Shown one piece after another: positions 4,624 through 22,366 of a DNA stretch of 64,000 nt. The position numbers were made by a program, and so were the translations under genes. This DNA is from Burkholderiaceae bacterium (GTDB lineage Bacteria; Pseudomonadota; Gammaproteobacteria; Burkholderiales; Burkholderiaceae_C). Location of the stretch: positions 1 to 64,000 of the forward strand of contig JAEUOY010000128.1 of assembly GCA_016790515.1 (NCBI GenBank). The letters are read 5' to 3'. The notes under the pieces were generated by a model. It was given only the letters and a program-made list of their open reading frames with translations. It was not told where the DNA came from and did not search any database. Position 1 is the stretch's first letter. The number at the start of each line of letters is the position of its first letter.

Positions 4624-5595
4624 TCACTTCTGGAAGGCGTCCAGCAGGGCCTTGCCTTCGGCGCCGGCCTTGTCCAGCCATTCCTTCTGCATCGTCTCGC
4701 CGACCTTCTTCATGTCGGCCTTCAGCGGCGCGCTGGGCGCCATGATGGTCATGCCGTTCTTCTTCAGCAGGTCGAGGTACTCGGTGTTCTTGGCCTTCGA
4801 GAGGGTCCAGCCGCGCGCCTCGGCGTCGGCGCCGGCCTTCAGCAGCGCGGCCTGGGTCGGCTTGTCGAGCGCGTCGAACGCAGCCTTGTTGACGATCACC
4901 GCGTTCTTCGGCAGCCAGGCCTGGGTGTCGACGTAGAACTTCAGGTGTTCGTAGGTCTTGGTGTCGTAGCCGGTGGCGCCGCTGGACATGTAGCTCTCGA
5001 CGACGCCGGTGGCCATCGCCTGGCTCAGCTCGGCGGCCTGCACCGTGACCGGCTGCGCGCCGACCAGCTCGGCGATGCGCGCGGTGCTGGGGCTGTAGGC
5101 GCGCCACTTGACGCCCTTCAGGTCGGCGGCGCTGTTGATCGCCTTCTTCGCGTAGATGCCCTGCGGCGGCCAGGCCACCGCGTACAGCAGCAGCATGCCC
5201 TGCTCGCCGAGCTTCTTCTCGAGCAGCGGCTTCTGCGCCTTGTACAGCTTGACCGCCTCGTCGTAGCTGTCGGCCAGGAAGGGCAGGCCGTCGGCGGCGT
5301 AGATCGGCCATTCGTTGCTGAAGTTGGCCAGCAGGATCTCGCCGATCTGCGCCTGGCCGCCCTGCACCGCGCGCTTGATCTCGGGCGCCTTGAACAGCGC
5401 GGCGTTGGCATGCACGGTGATCTTCAGCTTGCCGCCGCTGGCCTTGTCGACATCGGCCGCGAACTGCACCAGGTTCTCGGTGTGGAAGTTGGCGGCCGGG
5501 TAGGCGGCGGGCAGGTCCCACTTCGTCTGGGCCAGCGCCAGGGGCGTCAGCGCGGCAAGGCCAAGGGCGAGCACAAGGCGGCGGGTGAAGGTCAT
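4624..5595 (-). CDS. dctP: TRAP transporter periplasmic solute-binding protein, DctP family
   Basis: Periplasmic receptor that captures the substrate and delivers it to DctQM. It has 323 aa. The start at 5595 gives a clean signal peptide (MTFTRRLVLALGLAALTPLALA then QTKWDL), whereas the open frame continues upstream without one. DctP signatures include AAYPAANFHTENLVQFAADV near the N-terminus and KWRAYSPSTARIAELVGA mid-protein, where the ligand-binding Arg is expected in this family. It is first gene of dctPQM and is transcribed divergently from the DUF4399 operon across a 166-base spacer. The ligand is unknown. Confidence 0.92.
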   Translation of the reverse strand: MTFTRRLVLALGLAALTPLALAQTKWDLPAAYPAANFHTENLVQFAADVDKASGGKLKITVHANAALFKAPEIKRAVQGGQAQIGEILLANFSNEWPIYAADGLPFLADSYDEAVKLYKAQKPLLEKKLGEQGMLLLYAVAWPPQGIYAKKAINSAADLKGVKWRAYSPSTARIAELVGAQPVTVQAAELSQAMATGVVESYMSSGATGYDTKTYEHLKFYVDTQAWLPKNAVIVNKAAFDALDKPTQAALLKAGADAEARGWTLSKAKNTEYLDLLKKNGMTIMAPSAPLKADMKKVGETMQKEWLDKAGAEGKALLDAFQK

Positions 5596-11803: not shown

Positions 11804-13596
11804 GGACGGGGTTCTACCACCGCCGCGGTCGCCGCCGTCGCAGCCGGGTCGACGACCGCTTCCACGACCATCTGCAGCCGCTGCCGACCCTGGTATTCGT
11901 CGACGCCGACGCGGTAGGCCAGCGTCACCCGCGCCGGCAGCGGCTCGGCATGGCCGAACCAGATCGCGTCGCGCAGCGCGCCGGCATGGCGCAACCGCAG
12001 CTTCAGGTGCTTCTCGCCGACCAGGCGCTGCTGCAGCACCTCGACCTCGTCGCAGAACAGTGGCGCCTCGAAGCCCTGGCCCCAGACCTGCGCGTCGAGC
12101 GTGGCCACCGTCGGCAGGTCGAAGTACTCGGCGGCCAGCGGGCCGTCGGTGGCCAGCACGCGGTGCAGCGCGGCCGGCTGCAGCCACTCGGCGGCCACCT
12201 GCTGCAGCGCGGCGGCGAAGGCCGGCCACTGGTCTTCGGCCAGCGTGCAGCCGGCGGCCATCGCATGGCCGCCGAAGCGCAGCAGCACGCCGGGGTGGCG
12301 CTTGCTGACCAGGTCCAGCGCGTCGCGCAGGTGGAAGCCGGCGATCGAGCGGCCCGACCCCTTCAGCAACCCGTCCTGGCCACGCGCCAGCACGAAGGTG
12401 GGCCGGTGCAACCGGTCCTTCAGCCGTCCGGCGACGATGCCGACCACGCCTTCGTGGAAGGCCGGGTCGTACAGCACCAGCGCCGGCGGCGCCGCGGCAG
12501 CGTCGGGCTGGGCGGCGAGCAGCCCGTCGAGCAGCGCCTCGGCCTGCAGCCGCATGTCGGACTCGAGCTCGCGCCGCTGGCGGTTGATCGCGTCGAGCTG
12601 GCGTGCCAGTTCGGCGGCGCGCGCCGGGTCGTCGGTGCTGAGGCATTCGATGCCCAGCGTCATGTCCGACAGCCGGCCCGCGGCATTGACGCGCGGCCCC
12701 AGCGCAAAGCCGAAGTCGAAGCCGGCGGCGCCCGCAGGCACCCGCCCGGCCGCCGCGAACAGCGCCGCGACGCCGGGCTGCATGCGGCCGGCGCGCACCC
12801 GCTTCAGACCCTGCGCGACCAGCCGGCGGTTGTTGCCGTCCAGCCGCACCACGTCGGCCACCGTGCCGAGTGCGACCAGGTCGAGCAGGGCGTCCAGCCT
12901 GGGCTGGCCGGCGGCGTCGTACTGGCCGCGTCTGCGCTGTTCGGCGCGCAGCGCGAGCAGCACGTAGAACATCACGCCGACACCGGCCAGCGCCTTGCTC
13001 TCGAAGTCGCAGCCGGGCTGGTTCGGATTGACGATCACGTCCGCGTCGGGCAGCTGCACCGCGCCGTCGGGGCCGAGTGCCGGCAGGTGGTGGTCGGTCA
13101 CCAGCACCCCGAGCCCCAGCGCGCGGGCGTGGGCGACGCCGGCGCTGCTGGCGATGCCGTTGTCCACCGTCACCAGCAGCCGCGGCGGGTGCTGCGGGTC
13201 GCGCGCCAGCGCCAGGTCGACGATTGCCGGCGTCAGGCCGTAGCCATGCACCGCGCGGTCGGGCACCACGTAGCCGACGCTGCCCGGCACCGCGCCCAGC
13301 ATGGCCAGCCCGCGCAGCGCGACGGCGCAGGCGGTGGCGCCGTCGCAGTCGTAGTCGGCGACGATGCAGATGCGCTGTCCGGCGGTGATCGCATCGGCCA
13401 GCAGCACCGCGGCCTCGGCCGCGCCCTTCAGCGTGGCCGGCGGCAGCAGCCGGCCCAGGCCGTCGTCGAGCTCGTCGGCCGAGCGCACGCCGCGGGCCGC
13501 GAACAGCCGCGCCAGCAGCGGGTGCACGCCGGCCTGTTCGAGCGCGAAGGCCACCCTCGGCGGCACGTCGCGGGTGACCCAGGCCGGCGTGCTCAC
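11800..13596 (-). CDS. recJ: Single-stranded-DNA-specific 5'-3' exonuclease RecJ
   Basis: Recombination and repair exonuclease, 598 aa from GTG 13596. That start is chosen because it overlaps the upstream stop in GTGA; an in-frame ATG at 13704 would lie deep in the upstream gene. DHH-family catalytic motifs are visible: DYDCDG at 81-86, VDNG at 144-147 and TDHH at 167-170. The DHHA1 domain follows ([31 protein letters not shown]), then the C-terminal OB region. It is second gene of the long minus-strand operon, after the rpfE-like gene, as in several proteobacteria. Confidence 0.95.
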
Positions 13597-14519
13597 AGCG
13601 CCTCCAGCACCGCGTGCACCGAGGGCCTGCGCCAGCTCGCCGCCAGGCGCTGCCACAGGCCCGACGCCGCCGGGGCCCAGGTCCGGGCATGCCGTTCGCC
13701 GCACAGCGTCAGGCTCAGCGGCCCGCTGGCGCGCAGCAGCCCGGCGATCGGGCCGGCGTCCAGCGCCTGCCAGGCTTCACACCAGGCGGCCCAGTCCTCG
13801 GCCAGCGCGGCGTCGCGCAGGCGGTCGTCGACCTGCACCATGTCGGGCGCCGCGGCGCCGGACAGCCGGCCGCAGCCGCTCAGCCAGAACGAGTTGACGC
13901 TGGGCAGCCCGGCCGCCTCGCGGGCCTGGTTGATCGGGTGGGTGTGCAGCAGCATCTGCACCTCGTTCTGCAGCCGGCGCACCAGCCGCGCGCTGCGCTG
14001 CCCGGGCAGCCAGGGGTCGATGTTGCGGCCGACCACGCGGTCGAGCGAGGCGGTGACCAGGCCGTCGAGCAGCGGGTGGGCCGCCAGCCAGTCCATCGGC
14101 GCGGCCCAGTGCAGCGTGAAGCCCTCGGTCTCGAACAGCGGGCGCAGCGCGTCGAGCAGCGCGCGCGACTCGGCCTCGGCCAGCTGCAGCGCGGCCGGGT
14201 CGGTCAGGCTGACCGCGTCGCTGCCGACATGCAGGTGCACCGGCGTCAGCCGGCCCCAGCCGTGCTCGGCGGCCGGCAGGCCGAGCGCGGCGGCCTGCAG
14301 CGCGGCGAACGGCAGCGCCGCATCGGGTGCGTGCGGCCAGCCCAGGGCGCGGGCCAGCGCCTGCTCGTGCGGCGGGTTCGGGCTGAACTCGTCGCTGCCC
14401 AGCGCTTCGCCGGGCGCCAGCCGGCCGAGCAGCCGCGTCAGCGAGGGCAGCGACAGAGATTGCAGCGCCTGCCGGCCGGCCTCGGACACGCTGCCGGCGA
14501 AGGGGACGATCAGGTGCAT
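13593..14519 (-). CDS. RpfE-like conserved protein (COG4255 type) upstream of recJ
   Basis: 308 aa, conserved in beta- and gammaproteobacteria next to recJ. In Xanthomonas the neighbour of recJ is called rpfE; elsewhere it is loosely labelled a cofactor-independent phosphoglycerate mutase-like protein. No active-site motif can be assigned. Visible conserved pieces are MHLIVPFAGS at the start, TPVHLHVGSDAVSLTDP at about 92-108, LHTHPINQARE at about 192-202 and FWLSGCGRL at about 212-220. It is translationally coupled to recJ (GTGA overlap). A decayed partial copy lies at about 16405-16651. Confidence 0.62.
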   Translation of the reverse strand: MHLIVPFAGSVSEAGRQALQSLSLPSLTRLLGRLAPGEALGSDEFSPNPPHEQALARALGWPHAPDAALPFAALQAAALGLPAAEHGWGRLTPVHLHVGSDAVSLTDPAALQLAEAESRALLDALRPLFETEGFTLHWAAPMDWLAAHPLLDGLVTASLDRVVGRNIDPWLPGQRSARLVRRLQNEVQMLLHTHPINQAREAAGLPSVNSFWLSGCGRLSGAAAPDMVQVDDRLRDAALAEDWAAWCEAWQALDAGPIAGLLRASGPLSLTLCGERHARTWAPAASGLWQRLAASWRRPSVHAVLEAL

Positions 14520-14825
14520 GTCAGTGCCGGACCGCCGTCCCGGGCGGCTGAAGCGCGCTTCGGGAGGGCGGCGGGCAGGGCGGGCGAGCGGGCTTCATCG
14601 ATCCGGATTATCCGGGCACGGCGCCACCGACCTCCGGCGGATGCCCGGGTCGCAGGGTGCCTGGCTGCATGCGCCAGGCGCGGTCGTCCTGCGGCTGGCC
14701 GGCTTCGGTGGTTGTGGGTCGTGTCGGGGCTCCGCCGGCGCCGCAACGCGTCGCGATCCGGAAGCTGCCCGGACGGGTGGCGCGCGACGCGCCGACCCGC
14801 GTCCTGCAACCCGCGGCGCGGGCGT
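14520..14825. other. Spacer upstream of the rpfE-like gene, no gene seen
   Basis: 306 bases without a convincing coding frame. On the minus strand a GATAAT hexamer at 14607-14612, 88 bases before the rpfE-like ATG, could be a -10 element, though it sits inside a small palindrome and has no clear -35. A 6-bp inverted repeat (GCCTGG/CCAGGC) spans 14659-14679. The right end abuts the stop of the unrecognised 376-aa gene. The boundary of the inserted zone presumably lies here. Confidence 0.4.
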
Positions 14826-15956
14826 TCAGCGGCGAAGGCTTTGCAGCCAGTCGACTTCGGCCTGTTCCTCGATGGACGTCCAGCCGCCGGCCAGGATGTC
14901 TTTCAGCAGGTCGACCAGGGCAGCGCCCGACGGGCTGCCCAGACCGTCGGCCAGGGCCCCCTTGGGGCGGCTGCGGCACTGCAGGCGGGCCAGGCGCACG
15001 TACTCGAATGCCACGTCGTCGGCATCCGAATGGCGTTTCTCGTCGAGGTTCGAGAACGCGATGTAAACGAGGCCCAGATCGCCCAGCAGCTCGACGTGCA
15101 TCGCTCGGGCCAGGCCTTCCTCGTCGAAGCTGAACATGCCGTAGTAGCGGTCGACCAGCTGGTCGACGCGCGGGTCTGCGTGCAGGCCGCGCACGGAATA
15201 GTGAATCTCCTCCGCGGCGAAGCCGCCAGCCGCGCCGCCGACGATCAGGCCCACCAGCCCGCCCAAGGGGCCGGCCACCAGAAGCCCGGCCGCCGCACCC
15301 GCCCAGGCCCCACCGAATCCGCCGGCCATCGAAGTGGCGTTCTTGCTCACGGCGAAGGACTTGTCCCGCGACACATAGATGTCCAGTCCGGCCAGGGCCA
15401 CGCTGAGCAGCAGCAGGCCCGCTCCGCGCAGCTTCATGCCGCCGGGCGTGATCGACTTGCGGCTGCCGCCGGCCTTGTCGATCGCCTTCAGGAAGACCTC
15501 GTCCATCTGCTCGGGCGACAAGTCCTTCAAGGGCACGGCCTTCAGGTCCTTGCCCGCACCCACCGACGGCAGCTTGCCCTCGCGGGCCAGCGCGTTGGCG
15601 GCGTTGACCAGCAGCTGGTGCTTGGCGGGTTGCCGGGTGAGCAGCTTGGACAACACGGCCACCGTGGCGCGCGCCTTGTCCTGCTGAATCAGGCGCAGTT
15701 CGTTGCGCCGGCCGGCGATGTAGTCGAAGGCCCGGGCCGCCATGCCTCGATTGCAGCGTGCCCACGCCAGCACGTCGTCGGCTTCGGCACGGATCAGCTT
15801 CATGTATTCGAGGCGCGTGGGCACGTCCTGGATCAGTTGCGTGCCCACGAGCGCTGCTTCGGCCGCAAACGAGTTCACTGCCAGCCGCGTGCTGTCATAG
15901 GCACGATCGAGCTCGGCCCATGCCAGCTCGACGTCGATCAGCGAGGGGGACTGCAT
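14826..15956 (-). CDS. Unrecognised protein with a glycine-zipper membrane hairpin
   Basis: 376 aa from ATG 15956; not recognised. The first 150 residues are predicted helical, polar and Lys/Arg/Gln-rich. Residues about 175-195 form a hydrophobic segment (GLLLLSVALAGLDIYV). Residues about 207-245 form a Gly/Ala-rich hydrophobic hairpin (AAAGLLVAGPLGGLVGLIVG) of the glycine-zipper kind seen in pore-forming or membrane-inserting proteins. The C-terminal 120 residues are soluble and acidic. No N-terminal signal peptide is present. It is followed upstream, 7 bases away, by a second unrecognised gene on the same strand. It sits inside the rpfE-lolC insertion zone. Confidence 0.6.
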   Translation of the reverse strand: MQSPSLIDVELAWAELDRAYDSTRLAVNSFAAEAALVGTQLIQDVPTRLEYMKLIRAEADDVLAWARCNRGMAARAFDYIAGRRNELRLIQQDKARATVAVLSKLLTRQPAKHQLLVNAANALAREGKLPSVGAGKDLKAVPLKDLSPEQMDEVFLKAIDKAGGSRKSITPGGMKLRGAGLLLLSVALAGLDIYVSRDKSFAVSKNATSMAGGFGGAWAGAAAGLLVAGPLGGLVGLIVGGAAGGFAAEEIHYSVRGLHADPRVDQLVDRYYGMFSFDEEGLARAMHVELLGDLGLVYIAFSNLDEKRHSDADDVAFEYVRLARLQCRSRPKGALADGLGSPSGAALVDLLKDILAGGWTSIEEQAEVDWLQSLRR

Positions 15957-15963
15957 GCCTCGG

Positions 15964-16368
15964 TCACTTCGAGGGTGTCGGGGCCGCGGAGCGGTTCGGC
16001 GGCATGGCGTGCGCAAGGTCCGAGCCGGGCGGCGCAGCCCGCAACCAGAGATAGTCCGCGCCTGCCCCCAGGGCATGGCGCACGCCCCGGAAGGCACGCC
16101 ATCCCGCGTAGTTGCTCCCGCACTCGAAGCCGAGCGGCGAGCCGTCCGCGACAAAGGTCAGCAAGTTGCTCTCGCACCAATCCAGGCGAAGCTGCATCTC
16201 GTGAGGTCCGTCGGCCACGTCGAACTCGAACAGTTGCCCGCTTCGGACAACGCCCACCGGCACACCGTCGACCAGGACCTTGTAGGCACGAAGCAGGTCG
16301 GCAAGCTCGCGGCCCCGCTTCAATCGGACGGTCGTGGCTTCTCGCTCGGGGCCTGATCGCGTTTGCAC
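15964..16368 (-). CDS. Unrecognised 134-aa protein, start uncertain
   Basis: The open frame begins at GTG 16368 (134 aa); a TTG at codon 17 is an alternative. Residues about 28-75 look like a small beta-sandwich (YKVLVDGVPVGVVRSGQLFE) with PEGA-like periodicity, and Cys56/Cys74 may pair. There is no signal peptide or membrane segment. The frame stays open upstream of the GTG and runs without a stop into the decayed rpfE-like copy at 16405-16651, so the N-terminus may be chimeric. It is 7 bases upstream of the 376-aa gene and probably cotranscribed. Function unknown. Confidence 0.5.
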   Translation of the reverse strand: MQTRSGPEREATTVRLKRGRELADLLRAYKVLVDGVPVGVVRSGQLFEFDVADGPHEMQLRLDWCESNLLTFVADGSPLGFECGSNYAGWRAFRGVRHALGAGADYLWLRAAPPGSDLAHAMPPNRSAAPTPSK

Positions 16369-16404
16369 GGCGAGACCGAGGATAACTGCTGGACCGGGCC
16401 GCGT

Positions 16405-16651
16405 CGAAGCCGCCAGCCGGCCGCAGCCGCCGAGCAGCGGGTGGGCCGCCCGCCCATCCTGCGGCGCGGCCCGGTGCAGCGTGAAGCCCCCGGTCTCGAA
16501 CAGCGGGTGCAGCGCGTCGAGCAGCGCGCGCGACCCGGCCTGCAGCGCGGCGAACGGCAGCGCCGCATCGGGTGCGTGCGGCCAGCCTGGGGCGCGGGCC
16601 AGCGCCTGCTCGTGCGGCGGGTTCGGGCTGAACTCGTCGCTGCCCAGCGCT
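16405..16651 (-). pseudogene. Partial, internally deleted copy of the rpfE-like gene
   Basis: On the minus strand this stretch matches the rpfE-like gene at 13593-14519. Segments read SDEFSPNPPHEQALARA, GWPHAPDAALPFAALQA, SRALLDALHPLFET, GFTLHRAAP and AHPLL, then GCGRL, in the same order as the intact protein (from about residue 42 to about 220). Two in-frame deletions remove about 40 codons (between LQA and SRALL) and about 60 codons (between AHPLL and GCGRL). The first 40 codons and any start codon are missing, and the frame is closed upstream by a TAG near 16748. Same orientation as the intact gene 2.2 kb away. Confidence 0.85.
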
Positions 16652-16709
16652 GGCTGCGGCCGGCGAGCGCCGTCCGGGCGAGCAGCAGCCGGGGCGTGCC
16701 GCGCACCGG

Positions 16710-16715
16710 TACACT
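16710..16715 (+). promoter_or_regulatory. Possible -10 element upstream of the histidine kinase
   Basis: TACACT in the context GGTACACTGG lies 34 bases before the small ORF at 16749 and about 206 bases before the kinase GTG. No convincing -35 is seen 17 bases upstream. It is the only AT-containing promoter-like hexamer in an otherwise very GC-rich stretch. Confidence 0.22.
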
Positions 16716-16748
16716 GGTTCGAGATCCTGGACGCATGCCGACGACTCT

Positions 16749-16919
16749 ATGGGGACCGCTCGCCCGGACGCCGAATGCCGCCGGCTTGCCGGCGCGCTGT
16801 TCGCCGACATCGTCGCGGCACGCGCCGGCGGATGGCTCGGGCCGCTGCTGTCCGACGGCGGCGAGCCTTCTGACAAGCGGTCGCTGACCGGCCGTCGGTT
16901 GCGTTTCGCGGAGCGCTGA
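16749..16919 (+). CDS. Possible 56-aa ORF just upstream of the histidine kinase
   Basis: ATG 16749 to TGA 16919 gives 56 aa, ending 1 base before the kinase GTG at 16921. The product would have a Leu/Ala-rich amphipathic stretch (RRLAGALFADIVAARAGGWL) and a basic C-terminus (TGRRLRFAER). No family recognised and no clear ribosome site. The tight junction with the kinase suggests either a coupled leader peptide or a chance open frame in GC-rich DNA. Confidence 0.3.
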   Translation: MGTARPDAECRRLAGALFADIVAARAGGWLGPLLSDGGEPSDKRSLTGRRLRFAER

Positions 16920-16920
16920 G

Positions 16921-19536
<2,616 letters not shown>

Positions 19537-19725
19537 GCTCCGGCCAGGGCGCGTTCGAAGGCCCGACAGCCGGCGACGGCTTCGGGCAGGCCGCCGAATC
19601 CCGGGATCCTGCGCCGAACGCGACTGCGCGCTGCCTGTGCACTTGCTCCGGACGTGCATGCGGCCGAACCGCGCCGACGGTGGATCACGTGGCCAGGGAG
19701 CGATGGCCGCTCCTGGCCAGGCGTG
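19537..19725. other. Spacer after the histidine kinase with a hairpin
   Basis: 189 bases with no coding frame I can support. An inverted repeat GGCCAGG (19691-19697) / CCTGGCC (19712-19718), with partial pairing inside, could act as a terminator for the kinase gene, though no T-run follows. The lolC-like copy begins directly afterwards. Confidence 0.35.
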
Positions 19726-19958
19726 GTCAGCGCCGGCGCGCCGACCTGGCGCCTCTCGCGCCGGACGCCGCCGATCGAGTCGCGCCGCCATGAACGTGCC
19801 CTGCGAATGGCCGGTCGGCCGGCATTGCGCACGGGCCGGCCAGACCGGGCGGCACGACGGCAGCGTGCCGGTCACTCGGCGCTGATCGACGAGCTCCTGT
19901 CGATGCACGGCTTCCCGCCGGCAGTGGCCGACCGCATGCGCGGCGTGCTGGCGCATGA
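19726..19958 (+). pseudogene. Decayed copy of the lolC upstream region and 5' end
   Basis: This stretch aligns with 21046-21314. The shared part starts in the noncoding leader (both have AGCGCCGGCGCGCCGACCTG), includes the start (ATG 19790 versus 21110; MNVPCEWPVGR versus [11 protein letters not shown]), and ends at a piece encoding FPPAVADRMRGVLAHD versus [16 protein letters not shown]. About 37 bases that encode the first membrane segment in lolC are missing, which breaks the frame. The leader TAGCAT of lolC is also lost. Same orientation as intact lolC, 1.3 kb upstream of it. Confidence 0.85.
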
Positions 19959-20060
19959 CCCAGCGCAAGCCGCCGTCGCACCCGGTCCGGCACCCCGGCG
20001 CTCGGCGTGACAATGACCGGAGCCCCCATCGACCTCGTCAGCCACCACGGAGAGTTCGCC

Positions 20061-20861
20061 ATGGCCGAGCCCCATCGCACGCCCCTGCCCCTTCTTGCCC
20101 CGCTGAGTTGGCTGCGACGCGGTGCTGCCGATCTCCGCGACACGAACTTCCGAGGCGTCTTCTATGGCCTTTGCTTCCTCGGCCTGGCGCTCGCCATCGG
20201 ATGGATGCACGAGGCACTCTGGCAGGCCACGATGGGGCTGACGGCCATCGCCTTCCTGATCGGCCCGTTCCTGTGCTGCGGCGTCTACGAGCTGTCGCGC
20301 CAGCGTGAGCGCGGCGAGCCGCCCGACCTCGTCGCCAGCCTCACCTGCTGGATGCGCAACCTCAAGTCGATTGCGCTGTTCACGGTGCTGCTGGTGTTCT
20401 GCATGATCGTCTGGGCCCGCGTCTCGGTGGTGATGTTCGCGCTGTTCGCCAGTCAGGACTACGTGACACTGCAGGGCATCCTGCGCCAGATCGTCGAGGG
20501 CAGCCGCAACCTCGAGTTCCTGCTCGTCTGGTCCGTGGTGGGCTGCGGCTTCGCCAGCCTGGTGTTCGCGGTCTCGGTGGTGTCGATGCCGCTGCTGCTC
20601 GATCGGCAGGAAGACACGGTCGCCGCGATCGCCGCCAGCGTGCAGGCGCTCTGGCGGCAACCGGCCACCTGCGCAATCTGGGCCGCGTTGATCGTCGGGC
20701 TGGTGGGCGGCAGCCTGCTGCTGTTCCTGCCGGCGATCGTGATCACCGGGCCCTGGGTCGCGCACGCCACCTGGCATGCCTACCGGGCCCTGCTGCCCGT
20801 CGAGCCGTCATCCGCACCCAGCGACGTCGAGCGGGCCGTCCGTGCGCCGGAGCCGCAGTGA
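20061..20861 (+). CDS. DUF2189 multi-pass membrane protein
   Basis: 266 aa from ATG 20061, preceded by GGAGAG; an upstream in-frame start at 20007 adds only an unlikely polar leader. Six hydrophobic segments are seen, starting with GVFYGLCFLGLALAIGWMHEAL and LTAIAFLIGPFLCCGVYELSRQ. The latter, with RGEPPDL and SVVSMPLLLDR, is typical of the DUF2189 inner-membrane family. Function unknown. It lies between the decayed lolC copy and intact lolC, so it belongs to the inserted zone. DUF2189 genes elsewhere sit near cytochrome oxidase or transport genes, but nothing here indicates a role. Confidence 0.85.
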   Translation: MAEPHRTPLPLLAPLSWLRRGAADLRDTNFRGVFYGLCFLGLALAIGWMHEALWQATMGLTAIAFLIGPFLCCGVYELSRQRERGEPPDLVASLTCWMRNLKSIALFTVLLVFCMIVWARVSVVMFALFASQDYVTLQGILRQIVEGSRNLEFLLVWSVVGCGFASLVFAVSVVSMPLLLDRQEDTVAAIAASVQALWRQPATCAIWAALIVGLVGGSLLLFLPAIVITGPWVAHATWHAYRALLPVEPSSAPSDVERAVRAPEPQ

Positions 20862-20890
20862 GGGCTCGTTCCATGGTGTGAGCGCCCCCA

Positions 20891-20980
20891 GGGCCGGGCT
20901 GCGCCCGGCCCGCCCGCGCGGGACAAGGAAACCCGGGACGGCCCGGCGTTTCCCCGAGAGCCGCCGGGGCCCGTCCGGGG
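20891..20980. repeat. Inverted repeats between the DUF2189 gene and lolC
   Basis: A perfect 9-bp stem GGGCCGGGC (20891-20899) / GCCCGGCCC (20903-20911) with a 3-base loop is followed by a longer imperfect palindrome at about 20932-20980 (CCCGGGACGGCCCGGCG against CCGCCGGGGCCCGTCCGGG). It may serve as a terminator for the DUF2189 gene or be a REP-like element. No T-run follows. Confidence 0.45.
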
Positions 20981-21094
20981 CAGCGCGAGCCCACCCGCGG
21001 CCGTGCCCGCGCACCGGCTGTTGCAGGTCCGGCGCTCCGGCCCATGCCAGCGCCGGCGCGCCGACCTGACCCCGCTCGCGACCGACGCCGCTGA

Positions 21095-21100
21095 TAGCAT
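21095..21100 (+). promoter_or_regulatory. Possible -10 element of lolC
   Basis: TAGCAT (in GATAGCAT) ends 9 bases before the lolC ATG, which would give a very short or absent leader. The corresponding position in the decayed copy upstream (19726-19958) reads CGAGTC and has lost the hexamer. No clear -35. Confidence 0.28.
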
Positions 21101-21109
21101 CGCGCCCCT

Positions 21110-22366
21110 ATGAACGTGCCCTACGAATGGCAGATCGGCTGGCGCTACACCCGGGCCGGTCGGGCCGGTCGGCGCAACGGCTTCATCTCGTTCATCTCCT
21201 TCGTCTCGATGCTCGGCATCGCGCTGGGCGTCGCGGCGCTGATCATCGTGCTGTCGGTGATGAACGGCTTCCAGAAGGAAGTGACCGACCGCATGCTCAG
21301 CGTGGTGGCGCATGTCGAGGTCTTCGACGTGCAGGGCCAGGCGCTCGCCGACTGGCGCGCCACCGCGGCGCTGGCCAAGCAGAACCCGGCGGTGCTGGCC
21401 GCCGCGCCGTTCATTGCGACGCAGTCGCTGATCGCCCGCGGCGACGAGATGCGCGGCGCGGTGGTCCGCGGCATCGATCCCGTGGAGGAGGCCCGGGTCA
21501 CGCCGCTGGCCGCGCAGCTGCGCGACGGCGTGCTGGCCAGGCTGCAGCCCGGCGCCTGGCACATCGTGCTCGGCAGCGAGCTGGCGCGGCAGCTGCGGGT
21601 GCGGGTCGGCGACAGCGTCACGCTGGTCGCGCCGGGCGGCCAGGTCACGCCGGCGGGCACGCTGCCGCGGCTGAAGAGCTTCACGGTCGCCGGCACCTTC
21701 GACGCCGGCCACTACGAGTACGACAGCGGCCTGGCGCTGATCCACCTCGACGACGCGGCGCGGCTGTACCGGGTCGACGGCGCCACCGGCGTGCAGCTGA
21801 AGCTGGCCGACCTGCACCAGGCGCGCGCGGTGGCGCAGCAGCTGATCGCAACGCTGCCGCCGGGGCTGATGGTGCGCGACTGGACCCGCACCAACCGCAA
21901 CTGGTTCGATGCGGTGCAGCTGGAGAAGCGGCTGATGTTCATCATCCTGACGCTGATCGTCGCGGTGGCCGCGTTCAACCTGGTTTCGACGCTGGTGATG
22001 ACGGTGACCGACAAGCGCGCCGACATCGCGATCCTGCGCACGCTGGGCGCCAGCCCGCGCTCGGTGATGGCCGTCTTCGTCGTGCAGGGCGCGGCCAGCG
22101 GCGTGATCGGCACCTTGTCGGGCGTCGGTTTCGGGTTGCTGGTGGCGCTGAACATCGGCACCCTCGTGCCGGCGCTCGAGCGGCTGCTCGGCACGGTGTT
22201 CCTGCCCAGCAGCGTCTACCTGATCAGCCGCATGCCCAGCGACCCGCGCATGTCGGACATGCTGCCGATCGCGCTGATCTCGCTGGCGCTGTCCTTCGTC
22301 GCGACGCTGTACCCGAGCTGGCGCGCCAGCCGCGTGAAGCCCGCCGAGGCGCTGCGCTATGAGTGA
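21110..22366 (+). CDS. lolC: Lipoprotein-releasing ABC transporter permease LolC/LolE
   Basis: Inner-membrane permease of the LolCDE system that extracts outer-membrane lipoproteins for transfer to LolA. It has 418 aa with one N-terminal TM (about 25-48, [20 protein letters not shown]), a large periplasmic domain to about 270, then three TMs. Family motifs include [12 protein letters not shown] and, near the C-terminus, [19 protein letters not shown]. Betaproteobacteria usually carry a single LolC/E-type gene (LolF-like) with lolD, as here. It overlaps lolD by 8 bases. A decayed copy of its 5' end lies at 19726-19958. Confidence 0.94.

What the first reader, a model, noticed from the sequence alone, without database searches (positions are those of the whole stretch)
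13593..21314. Nested decayed copies of both flanking genes inside an insertion zone between an rpfE-like gene and lolC
The intact rpfE-like gene (minus) and intact lolC (plus) are divergent. Between them lie a partial rpfE-like copy (about 16405-16651, minus) and a partial lolC copy with part of its leader (about 19726-19958, plus). The order is intact rpfE-like, two unknown genes, decayed rpfE-like, histidine kinase, decayed lolC, DUF2189, intact lolC. Each copy keeps the orientation of its parent, so an inner divergent junction sits inside an outer one. This fits entry of foreign DNA carrying homologous but diverged ends (a second rpfE-lolC junction already holding the kinase), followed by decay. 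It may mark a recurrent integration site that works without an integrase, using the conserved divergent genes as anchors.
Basis: partly seen in the sequence, partly recalled or inferred. Interest (0 to 1): 0.75.

Follow-up and report, generated by a model that had tools for sequence, protein, structure and literature searches.

The report
Decayed gene copies bracketing inserted genes
Between two conserved bacterial genes lies a patch of gained genes that still contains dead, partial copies of both neighbours, which look like leftovers of the bacterium's own gene ends rather than the ends of foreign DNA; it is a well-preserved example of a broadly known kind of gene gain.

Summary
Inside the rpfE-like/lolC junction lie two fragments of rpfE (within 16404-16690) and two of lolC with part of its leader (19728-19957), far above chance. 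In most relatives the two genes are adjacent (24-194 bp in 47 of 80 named loci, and in 12 of the 16 other genus members in which both genes were found), so 6.6 kb was gained here.

Both remnants are closest to this genome's own genes and share most of its private bases; the lolC leader is shared far better by the two copies than with any of 19 relatives; differences do not favour third codon positions. They are own-lineage copies that decayed neutrally. lolC' is two to four times as diverged as rpfE', so a single entry is unlikely.

Best reading: at least two additive gains, each leaving cargo (two unknown genes; a DUF2189 gene) between direct repeats of the neighbouring gene's 5' part. No integrase, transposase or tRNA was found. 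Several relatives carry other cargo here, without remnants. This fits known integrase-free, homology-assisted gene gain; the two-sided nested form is a variant. The recombination step is inferred.

The parts
13593..14519 (-). intact rpfE-like gene (phosphoglycerate-mutase-like), outer left copy
   Evidence: 308-aa ORF; adjacent to lolC in most relatives; weak apgM-family hits
14829..15953 (-). cargo gene U1, 375 aa, no Pfam family at E<=0.001 (weak glycine-zipper-like stretch)
   Evidence: a match at E<=0.001 in 13 of 399 genomes of the order, this one included; the best-scoring other is 34% identical over part of the length
15964..16368 (-). cargo gene U2, 134 aa, no Pfam or NCBIfam family at E<=0.001
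16404..16690 (-). decayed rpfE fragment (rpfE'): codons ~38-77 and 115-153 clear, about codon 213 weak
16921..19536 (+). cargo gene: hybrid sensor histidine kinase (PAS, HisKA, HATPase, receiver)
   Evidence: Pfam; best genus relative 53-56% in G004, on another contig than its rpfE and lolC
19728..19957 (+). decayed lolC fragment (lolC') with 62 bp of its leader
   Evidence: TAGCAT of the leader (21095-21100) reads TCGAGT here (19775-19780)
20007..20861 (+). cargo gene: DUF2189 membrane protein
   Evidence: Pfam PF09955; at most 41% identical to any match in the other 20 genus genomes
21048..21109 (+). lolC leader, the part that is duplicated at 19728-19789
   Evidence: 51 of 62 identical to the remnant's leader
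21110..22366 (+). intact lolC (LolCE family), outer right copy
   Evidence: TIGR02212 above cut-off

Best explanation
The empty recJ-rpfE-lolC junction of the genus gained genes here in at least two additive steps. In each step a cargo ended up between two direct copies of the neighbouring gene's 5' part: lolC leader to about codon 68 on either side of the DUF2189 gene, and an rpfE 5' part on either side of U1-U2. The outer copy, continuous with recJ or lolD, stayed whole and was kept by selection; the inner copy was cut off, unneeded and decayed neutrally by substitution and deletion. Shown: the copies, their orientation, their own-lineage origin, decay without third-position bias, unequal divergence, the empty state in most relatives, and no integrase, transposase or tRNA hit. 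Inferred: that cargo and duplication came together, through recombination anchored by homology in the flanking gene at one side and illegitimate at the other, or through a circle carrying gene end plus cargo, as proposed for rhs tips and type VI effector arrays. Whether the kinase came before, between or after these steps is not known.
For: Remnants real and direct. The nested order rpfE, rpfE', lolC', lolC cannot come from one tandem duplication of the junction, which would give rpfE, lolC', rpfE', lolC (reasoning from the order). Remnants nearest to own genes; where the own gene departs from the relatives' consensus the remnant shares the own base in 10 of 14 (lolC) and 13 of 20 (rpfE) columns; where remnant and own gene differ, the own gene has the commonest base in 44 of 53 and 17 of 30 columns. 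Leader: own and remnant 51 of 62 identical, local score 73; the 19 relatives score 10-34 against the own leader. Codon positions of differences 21/26/7. Divergence differs between the two remnants. Junction empty in most relatives. Cargo without close genus relatives (kinase, DUF2189) or, for U1, in the order sample.
Against: The break points are eroded, so cargo and duplication cannot be shown to be one event. The rpfE' 5' end and promoter, which the model predicts left of the kinase, could not be recognised at 16691-16920. The remnant rather than the own gene has the commonest base in 6 of 53 and 8 of 30 differing columns. The unequal divergence could also come from later gene conversion of rpfE' (its two blocks differ: 2 of 116 against 10 of 116, p 0.03), and its size depends on the alignment (about fourfold on trimmed blocks, about twofold on the multiple alignment). 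No relative with an intermediate state was found.
Confidence: 0.6

Rival explanations
1. Two steps on each side: a short tandem duplication of the gene's 5' part came first, and genes later landed by chance in the dead spare copy, where insertion does no harm.
For: Short tandem duplications are common (recalled). Eroded break points allow it. Other relatives carry cargo here without remnants, so cargo can enter without duplication.
Against: On both sides the cargo sits where the duplication junction would be, which would need two coincidences.
Confidence: 0.18
2. One reading: one entry of foreign DNA that carried a diverged rpfE-kinase-lolC junction, followed by decay.
For: Nested order and orientation fit it directly.
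Against: Own-lineage signal in both remnants and in the leader; no third-position excess; unequal divergence.
Confidence: 0.08
3. DUF2189 was first gained downstream of lolC, as a lolC-DUF2189-lolD operon, and a fresh lolC then came in between DUF2189 and lolD while the old lolC was deleted to a stub.
For: In two named relatives, L092 and L096, a DUF2189 gene lies between lolC and lolD on the same strand.
Against: DUF2189 there is only 32-37% identical to this one. In the genus loci no DUF2189 hit lies between lolC and lolD. It does not explain the rpfE side.
Confidence: 0.08
4. Assembly artefact: a contig stitched from strains that differ at this junction.
For: The genome is 82% complete in 176 contigs. 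rpfE and rpfE' share exact runs of up to about 60 bp that can tangle an assembly graph.
Against: The remnants hold many substitutions and several deletions, so they are real decayed DNA of some strain; stitching would not make them.
Confidence: 0.06

Closest known systems
Integrase-free gene-transfer hotspots with recombination in flanking core genes (Oliveira et al. 2017, PMC5635113; start of abstract and passages seen)
   Same: Cargo between conserved core genes, different in different genomes, with no integrase hit.
   Different: [quoted passage not shown] I saw no remnants of those genes described in the passages. Here each side keeps a dead 5' copy. Hotspot status by their statistic was not tested.
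rhs C-terminal tip displacement (Jackson et al. 2009, PMC2935791; passages seen)
   Same: Insertion anchored in a conserved gene leaves truncated pieces of that gene beyond the new cargo; the paper proposes a circular intermediate.
   Different: There the 3' end of an rhs gene is displaced on one side; here the 5' ends of two other conserved genes, on both sides of one junction.
Sequential type VI effector-immunity displacement in Vibrio cholerae by a process akin to homology-facilitated illegitimate recombination (PMC5361080; abstract and passages seen)
   Same: Successive additive insertions with leftovers of earlier states.
   Different: There the leftovers are mainly immunity genes of earlier modules; here they are own-lineage copies of the flanking genes.
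Transformation-made merodiploids in Streptococcus pneumoniae (PMC3784515; part of abstract and passages seen)
   Same: Incoming DNA can cause a tandem duplication by pairing on two sister chromatids.
   Different: Those duplications are about 100-900 kb and rest on chromosomal repeats; here the repeated pieces are some hundreds of bases, with cargo between the copies.

Membership tests
Integrase-free hotspot flanked by core genes | conserved flanking genes with variable cargo between them | tested here: met
   Of 80 named loci: 47 with a gap of 200 bp or less, 7 with a gap over 200 bp (684-2409 bp), 21 without lolC in the 1.5 kb or more of upstream DNA held, 5 on too short a contig. Cargo families differ between loci, except that L090 and L091 look alike by eye
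Integrase-free hotspot flanked by core genes | more transferred genes than expected for the genome (hotspot statistic) | not tested
   no whole-genome gene table and no control junctions were analysed
Integrase-free hotspot flanked by core genes | raised recombination in the flanking core genes | not testable with these tools
   needs many strains of one species
Additive displacement by one-sided homology (rhs / type VI type) | truncated leftover of the anchor gene on the far side of the cargo, in direct orientation | tested here: met
Additive displacement by one-sided homology (rhs / type VI type) | microhomology or no homology at the other end of the insertion | tested here: inconclusive
   break points eroded
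Site-specific integrative element | integrase gene and tRNA or other att site | tested here: not met
   no integrase family in the four cargo genes; no tRNA or tmRNA in the window. Small ORFs of the zone were not all scanned, and non-tRNA att sites were not tested
Transposon or IS-borne insertion | transposase, terminal inverted repeats, short target duplication | tested here: not met
   no transposase family in the four cargo genes. Of 133 inverted-repeat pairs only the 25 longest were listed: 21-34 bp, 70-86% complementary, as expected of G+C-rich DNA; one of them (14524-14549 with 19968-19993, 73%) spans much of the zone but is no better than the rest. The direct repeats are hundreds of bases long

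The most novel reading that the evidence does not exclude
The junction is a place where conserved divergent genes act as reusable anchors: each gain brings or makes a fresh 5' end for the anchor gene and leaves the old one inside, so that layers of dead gene ends record the order and age of successive gains without any mobile-element enzyme.
Probability: 0.15. Interest if true: 0.5.

Novelty: new variant of a known kind. Interest (0 to 1): 0.3.

Why it matters
Gene gain between core genes without integrases is known from population statistics, but the events themselves leave few readable traces. Here both flanks keep leftovers with different divergence, so the order of gains might be read, and the leftovers give a small local record of unselected mutation in DNA of about 72% G+C. 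It matters mainly as a worked example, not as a new system.

Tried and rejected
Single tandem duplication of the junction: rejected on gene order. Foreign diverged ends: rejected. Mobile element: no integrase, transposase or tRNA hit and no convincing bounding inverted repeat among the 25 listed. Defence island: no PADLOC hit at E<=0.1 for U1, U2 or DUF2189; the kinase was not scanned there. Same remnants in relatives: the self-comparison of the loci (E<=1e-6) found lolC/lolE-type paralogues (such as L025, L047, L052), inverted leader repeats (L059, L073, L080, L091; L059 also one short direct leader repeat, 4793-4845) and a few short matches (L060, L089, L117), none a direct copy of rpfE or lolC coding sequence inside the junction. 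For G002, G007 and G013, whose two genes lie on different contigs, only the DNA held was checked, with the window's proteins at E<=1e-5, and no stray piece was found. Remains elsewhere in the genome: besides the rpfE and lolC copies themselves, kinase-domain matches and short G+C-rich ones only. Close kinase relatives in the family sample: at E<=1e-120 only the window's own genome of 299 (440-residue query). U2 beside U1 homologues: no U2 hit in L177-L187, but the same tblastn did not recover U1 there either, so this says little. Promoter scan: no sigma-70-like site. Literature: four searches ran. I saw no description of two-sided nested remnants in their listings or in the passages read, which is no proof of absence.

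Weak points of my own counts: the first rpfE' block has 2 differences in 116 bases if cut at the internal deletion and 8 in 129 if not. Remnant divergence was tested as 12 of 245 against 43 of 215 (p 5e-7; its first number took 2 differences over 129 bases), 12 of 232 (p 2e-6), 18 of 245 (p 9e-5) and, on the multiple alignment, 30 of 279 against 53 of 233 (p 3e-4). The codon-position blocks came from a permissive scoring (+1/-1) and include less certain ends. The A/T to G/C count includes the 13 extra columns; in the polarised rpfE' columns it is 6 of 47 against 10 of 182, so the bias rests mainly on lolC'. The genus and named-locus sets overlap in genomes. The named loci are the best 80 of 153 relatives found.
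Full report
Observation. The window (G000:C69:1-64000 of a 5.0-Mb, 176-contig, 82% complete genome) holds an rpfE-like gene (13593-14519, minus) and lolC (21110-22366, plus) with 6590 bp between them. Self-alignment finds two fragments of the first at 16426-16573 and 16536-16689 and two of the second, with 62 bp of leader, at 19728-19861 and 19877-19957, all in the parents' orientation. Scores are far above shuffles and above any other match of these genes in the window. In a base-rate scan of 24 stretches totalling 472,845 bases (four overlapping pieces of the window, 20 stretches of the same genome) no other direct pair of 60 bp or more reached 79% identity.

Ancestral state. recJ-rpfE-lolC-lolD is the common order. 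Of 80 named loci (the best 80 of 153 relatives found), 47 have rpfE and lolC within 200 bp (24-194), 7 have a larger gap, 21 show no lolC in at least 1.5 kb of upstream DNA held, and 5 lie on too short a contig. In the genus, 21 genomes were searched for rpfE and 17 had it; lolC was found in the same 17. They are this genome, 12 with gaps of 24-194 bp, one (G004) with 894 bp, and three (G002, G007, G013) with the genes on different contigs. So the material between the two genes here is most simply a gain.

Cargo. U1 (375 aa) and U2 (134 aa) match no Pfam family at E<=0.001. U1 has a match in 13 of 399 genomes of the order including this one; the best-scoring other is 34% identical over part of its length. 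The kinase is a hybrid sensor kinase, nearest in the genus to a gene elsewhere in G004 (53-56%). The DUF2189 gene is at most 41% identical to any match in the other 20 genus genomes, and 50% to its best match in 399 family genomes.

Origin of the remnants. Aligned with relatives, each remnant is closest to this genome's own gene: lolC' 180 of 233 (next best 0.66 among 19 relatives), rpfE' 249 of 279 (next best 0.77 among 17). The leader of lolC is 51 of 62 identical between gene and remnant (local score 73); the 19 relatives score 10-34 against it. Where the own gene departs from the 60% consensus the remnant shares its base 10 of 14 and 13 of 20 times. Where the two differ, the own gene has the commonest base 44 of 53 and 17 of 30 times; results the other way are 6 of 53 and 8 of 30. 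Differences fall on codon positions 1/2/3 as 21/26/7 (chi-square p 0.005). A functional diverged homologue would show a third-position excess. The deficit fits a G+C-ward bias: 35 of 121 A/T sites changed to G/C, 14 of 339 G/C sites to A/T, and third positions are already G+C-rich. TAGCAT, present in the 62-base leader of 17 of 19 relatives, is changed in lolC' (its role as a -10 box is my inference). These are own-lineage copies that decayed without selection.

More than one event. Clean blocks differ: rpfE' 12 of 232, lolC' 43 of 215 (p 2e-6); on the multiple alignment 30 of 279 against 53 of 233 (p 3e-4). A single entry of one foreign junction predicts the same age. Later gene conversion of rpfE' is an alternative, since its two blocks differ (2 of 116 against 10 of 116, p 0.03). 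The nested order excludes one tandem duplication of the junction. What remains is that each outer cargo (U1-U2; DUF2189) lies between direct copies of the adjacent gene's 5' part.

Mechanism. I propose additive gain anchored in the flanking gene: one end by homology, the other illegitimate, or through a circle carrying gene end plus cargo. The outer gene stays whole and is kept by selection (lolCDE is essential in E. coli; recalled), and the inner stub decays. This is inferred; the break points are too eroded to show microhomology. No integrase or transposase family was found in the cargo genes, no tRNA in the window, and no convincing bounding inverted repeat among the 25 listed of 133 pairs.

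Other relatives. Junction cargo elsewhere includes a PEP-CTERM protein (G004), an MFS transporter (L058), a YCF48/BNR-repeat protein (L064), a TraB/gumN-family protein (L105), a weak glycosyltransferase match (L118), a GDPD-family gene (L144, G030) and a MazE-like (just under its cut-off) and PemK-like pair (L145, G035). The L075 stretch scanned had no Pfam hit. L090 and L091 hold repeat-like DNA by eye. In G002 a nitrite-reductase-like gene lies upstream of lolC (Pfam) and a gene that looks like a phosphatase/kinase (by eye) upstream of rpfE, on separate contigs. None of these loci showed a direct own-gene remnant in the junction DNA held. The junction thus takes up cargo repeatedly, but I ran no control with other junctions, so I do not call it a hotspot in the statistical sense.

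Known work. Oliveira et al. 2017 report that many hotspots lack mobile elements and propose double recombination in flanking core genes; [quoted passage not shown] recJ is next to rpfE here. Leftovers beyond an insertion are described for rhs tips and type VI arrays. Transformation can make tandem duplications by pairing on sister chromatids. Integration assisted by homology at one end is discussed for small variable segments (PMC2884548, passages). The original papers on homology-facilitated illegitimate recombination were seen only as reference-list entries. The present case is a two-sided, nested variant at conserved genes.

Noticed in passing
L199 4180-13420 (G000:C57 about 24.2-33.4 kb): A CRISPR-like array of about 150 units with a 61-bp period (repeat about 28-29 bp, differing spacers) in the same genome; the count is from array length over period.
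   Followed up: no
window 16404-16690 and 19728-19957: Decay of the remnants, lolC' above all, is biased from A/T to G/C (35 of 121 against 14 of 339 sites, p 2e-12), so unselected DNA here may drift to even higher G+C; alignment choice may inflate this.
   Followed up: partly
L092 7916-8713 and L096 7695-8462: In two other Burkholderiales (of 54 named loci with a lolC) a DUF2189 gene sits between lolC and lolD on the same strand; with the window that is DUF2189 next to lolC three times.
   Followed up: partly
L220-L222: Other DUF2189 genes lie beside a gene that looks by eye like metC and a region matching an ABC ATPase (45-49% to LolD), a recurring neighbourhood.
   Followed up: no
window 14605-14612: An ATTATC motif seen just upstream of rpfE in several relatives lies about 90 bp from the rpfE start here, as if about 80 bp had been added to the leader (by eye).
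   Followed up: no
L051, L053, L055, L067, L073, L077, L097, L106, L109, L113 and others: In 21 of 80 named loci no lolC lies in the upstream DNA held beside rpfE, and the neighbours seen in the 12 looked at differ between lineages, so the junction has probably been broken more than once.
   Followed up: partly
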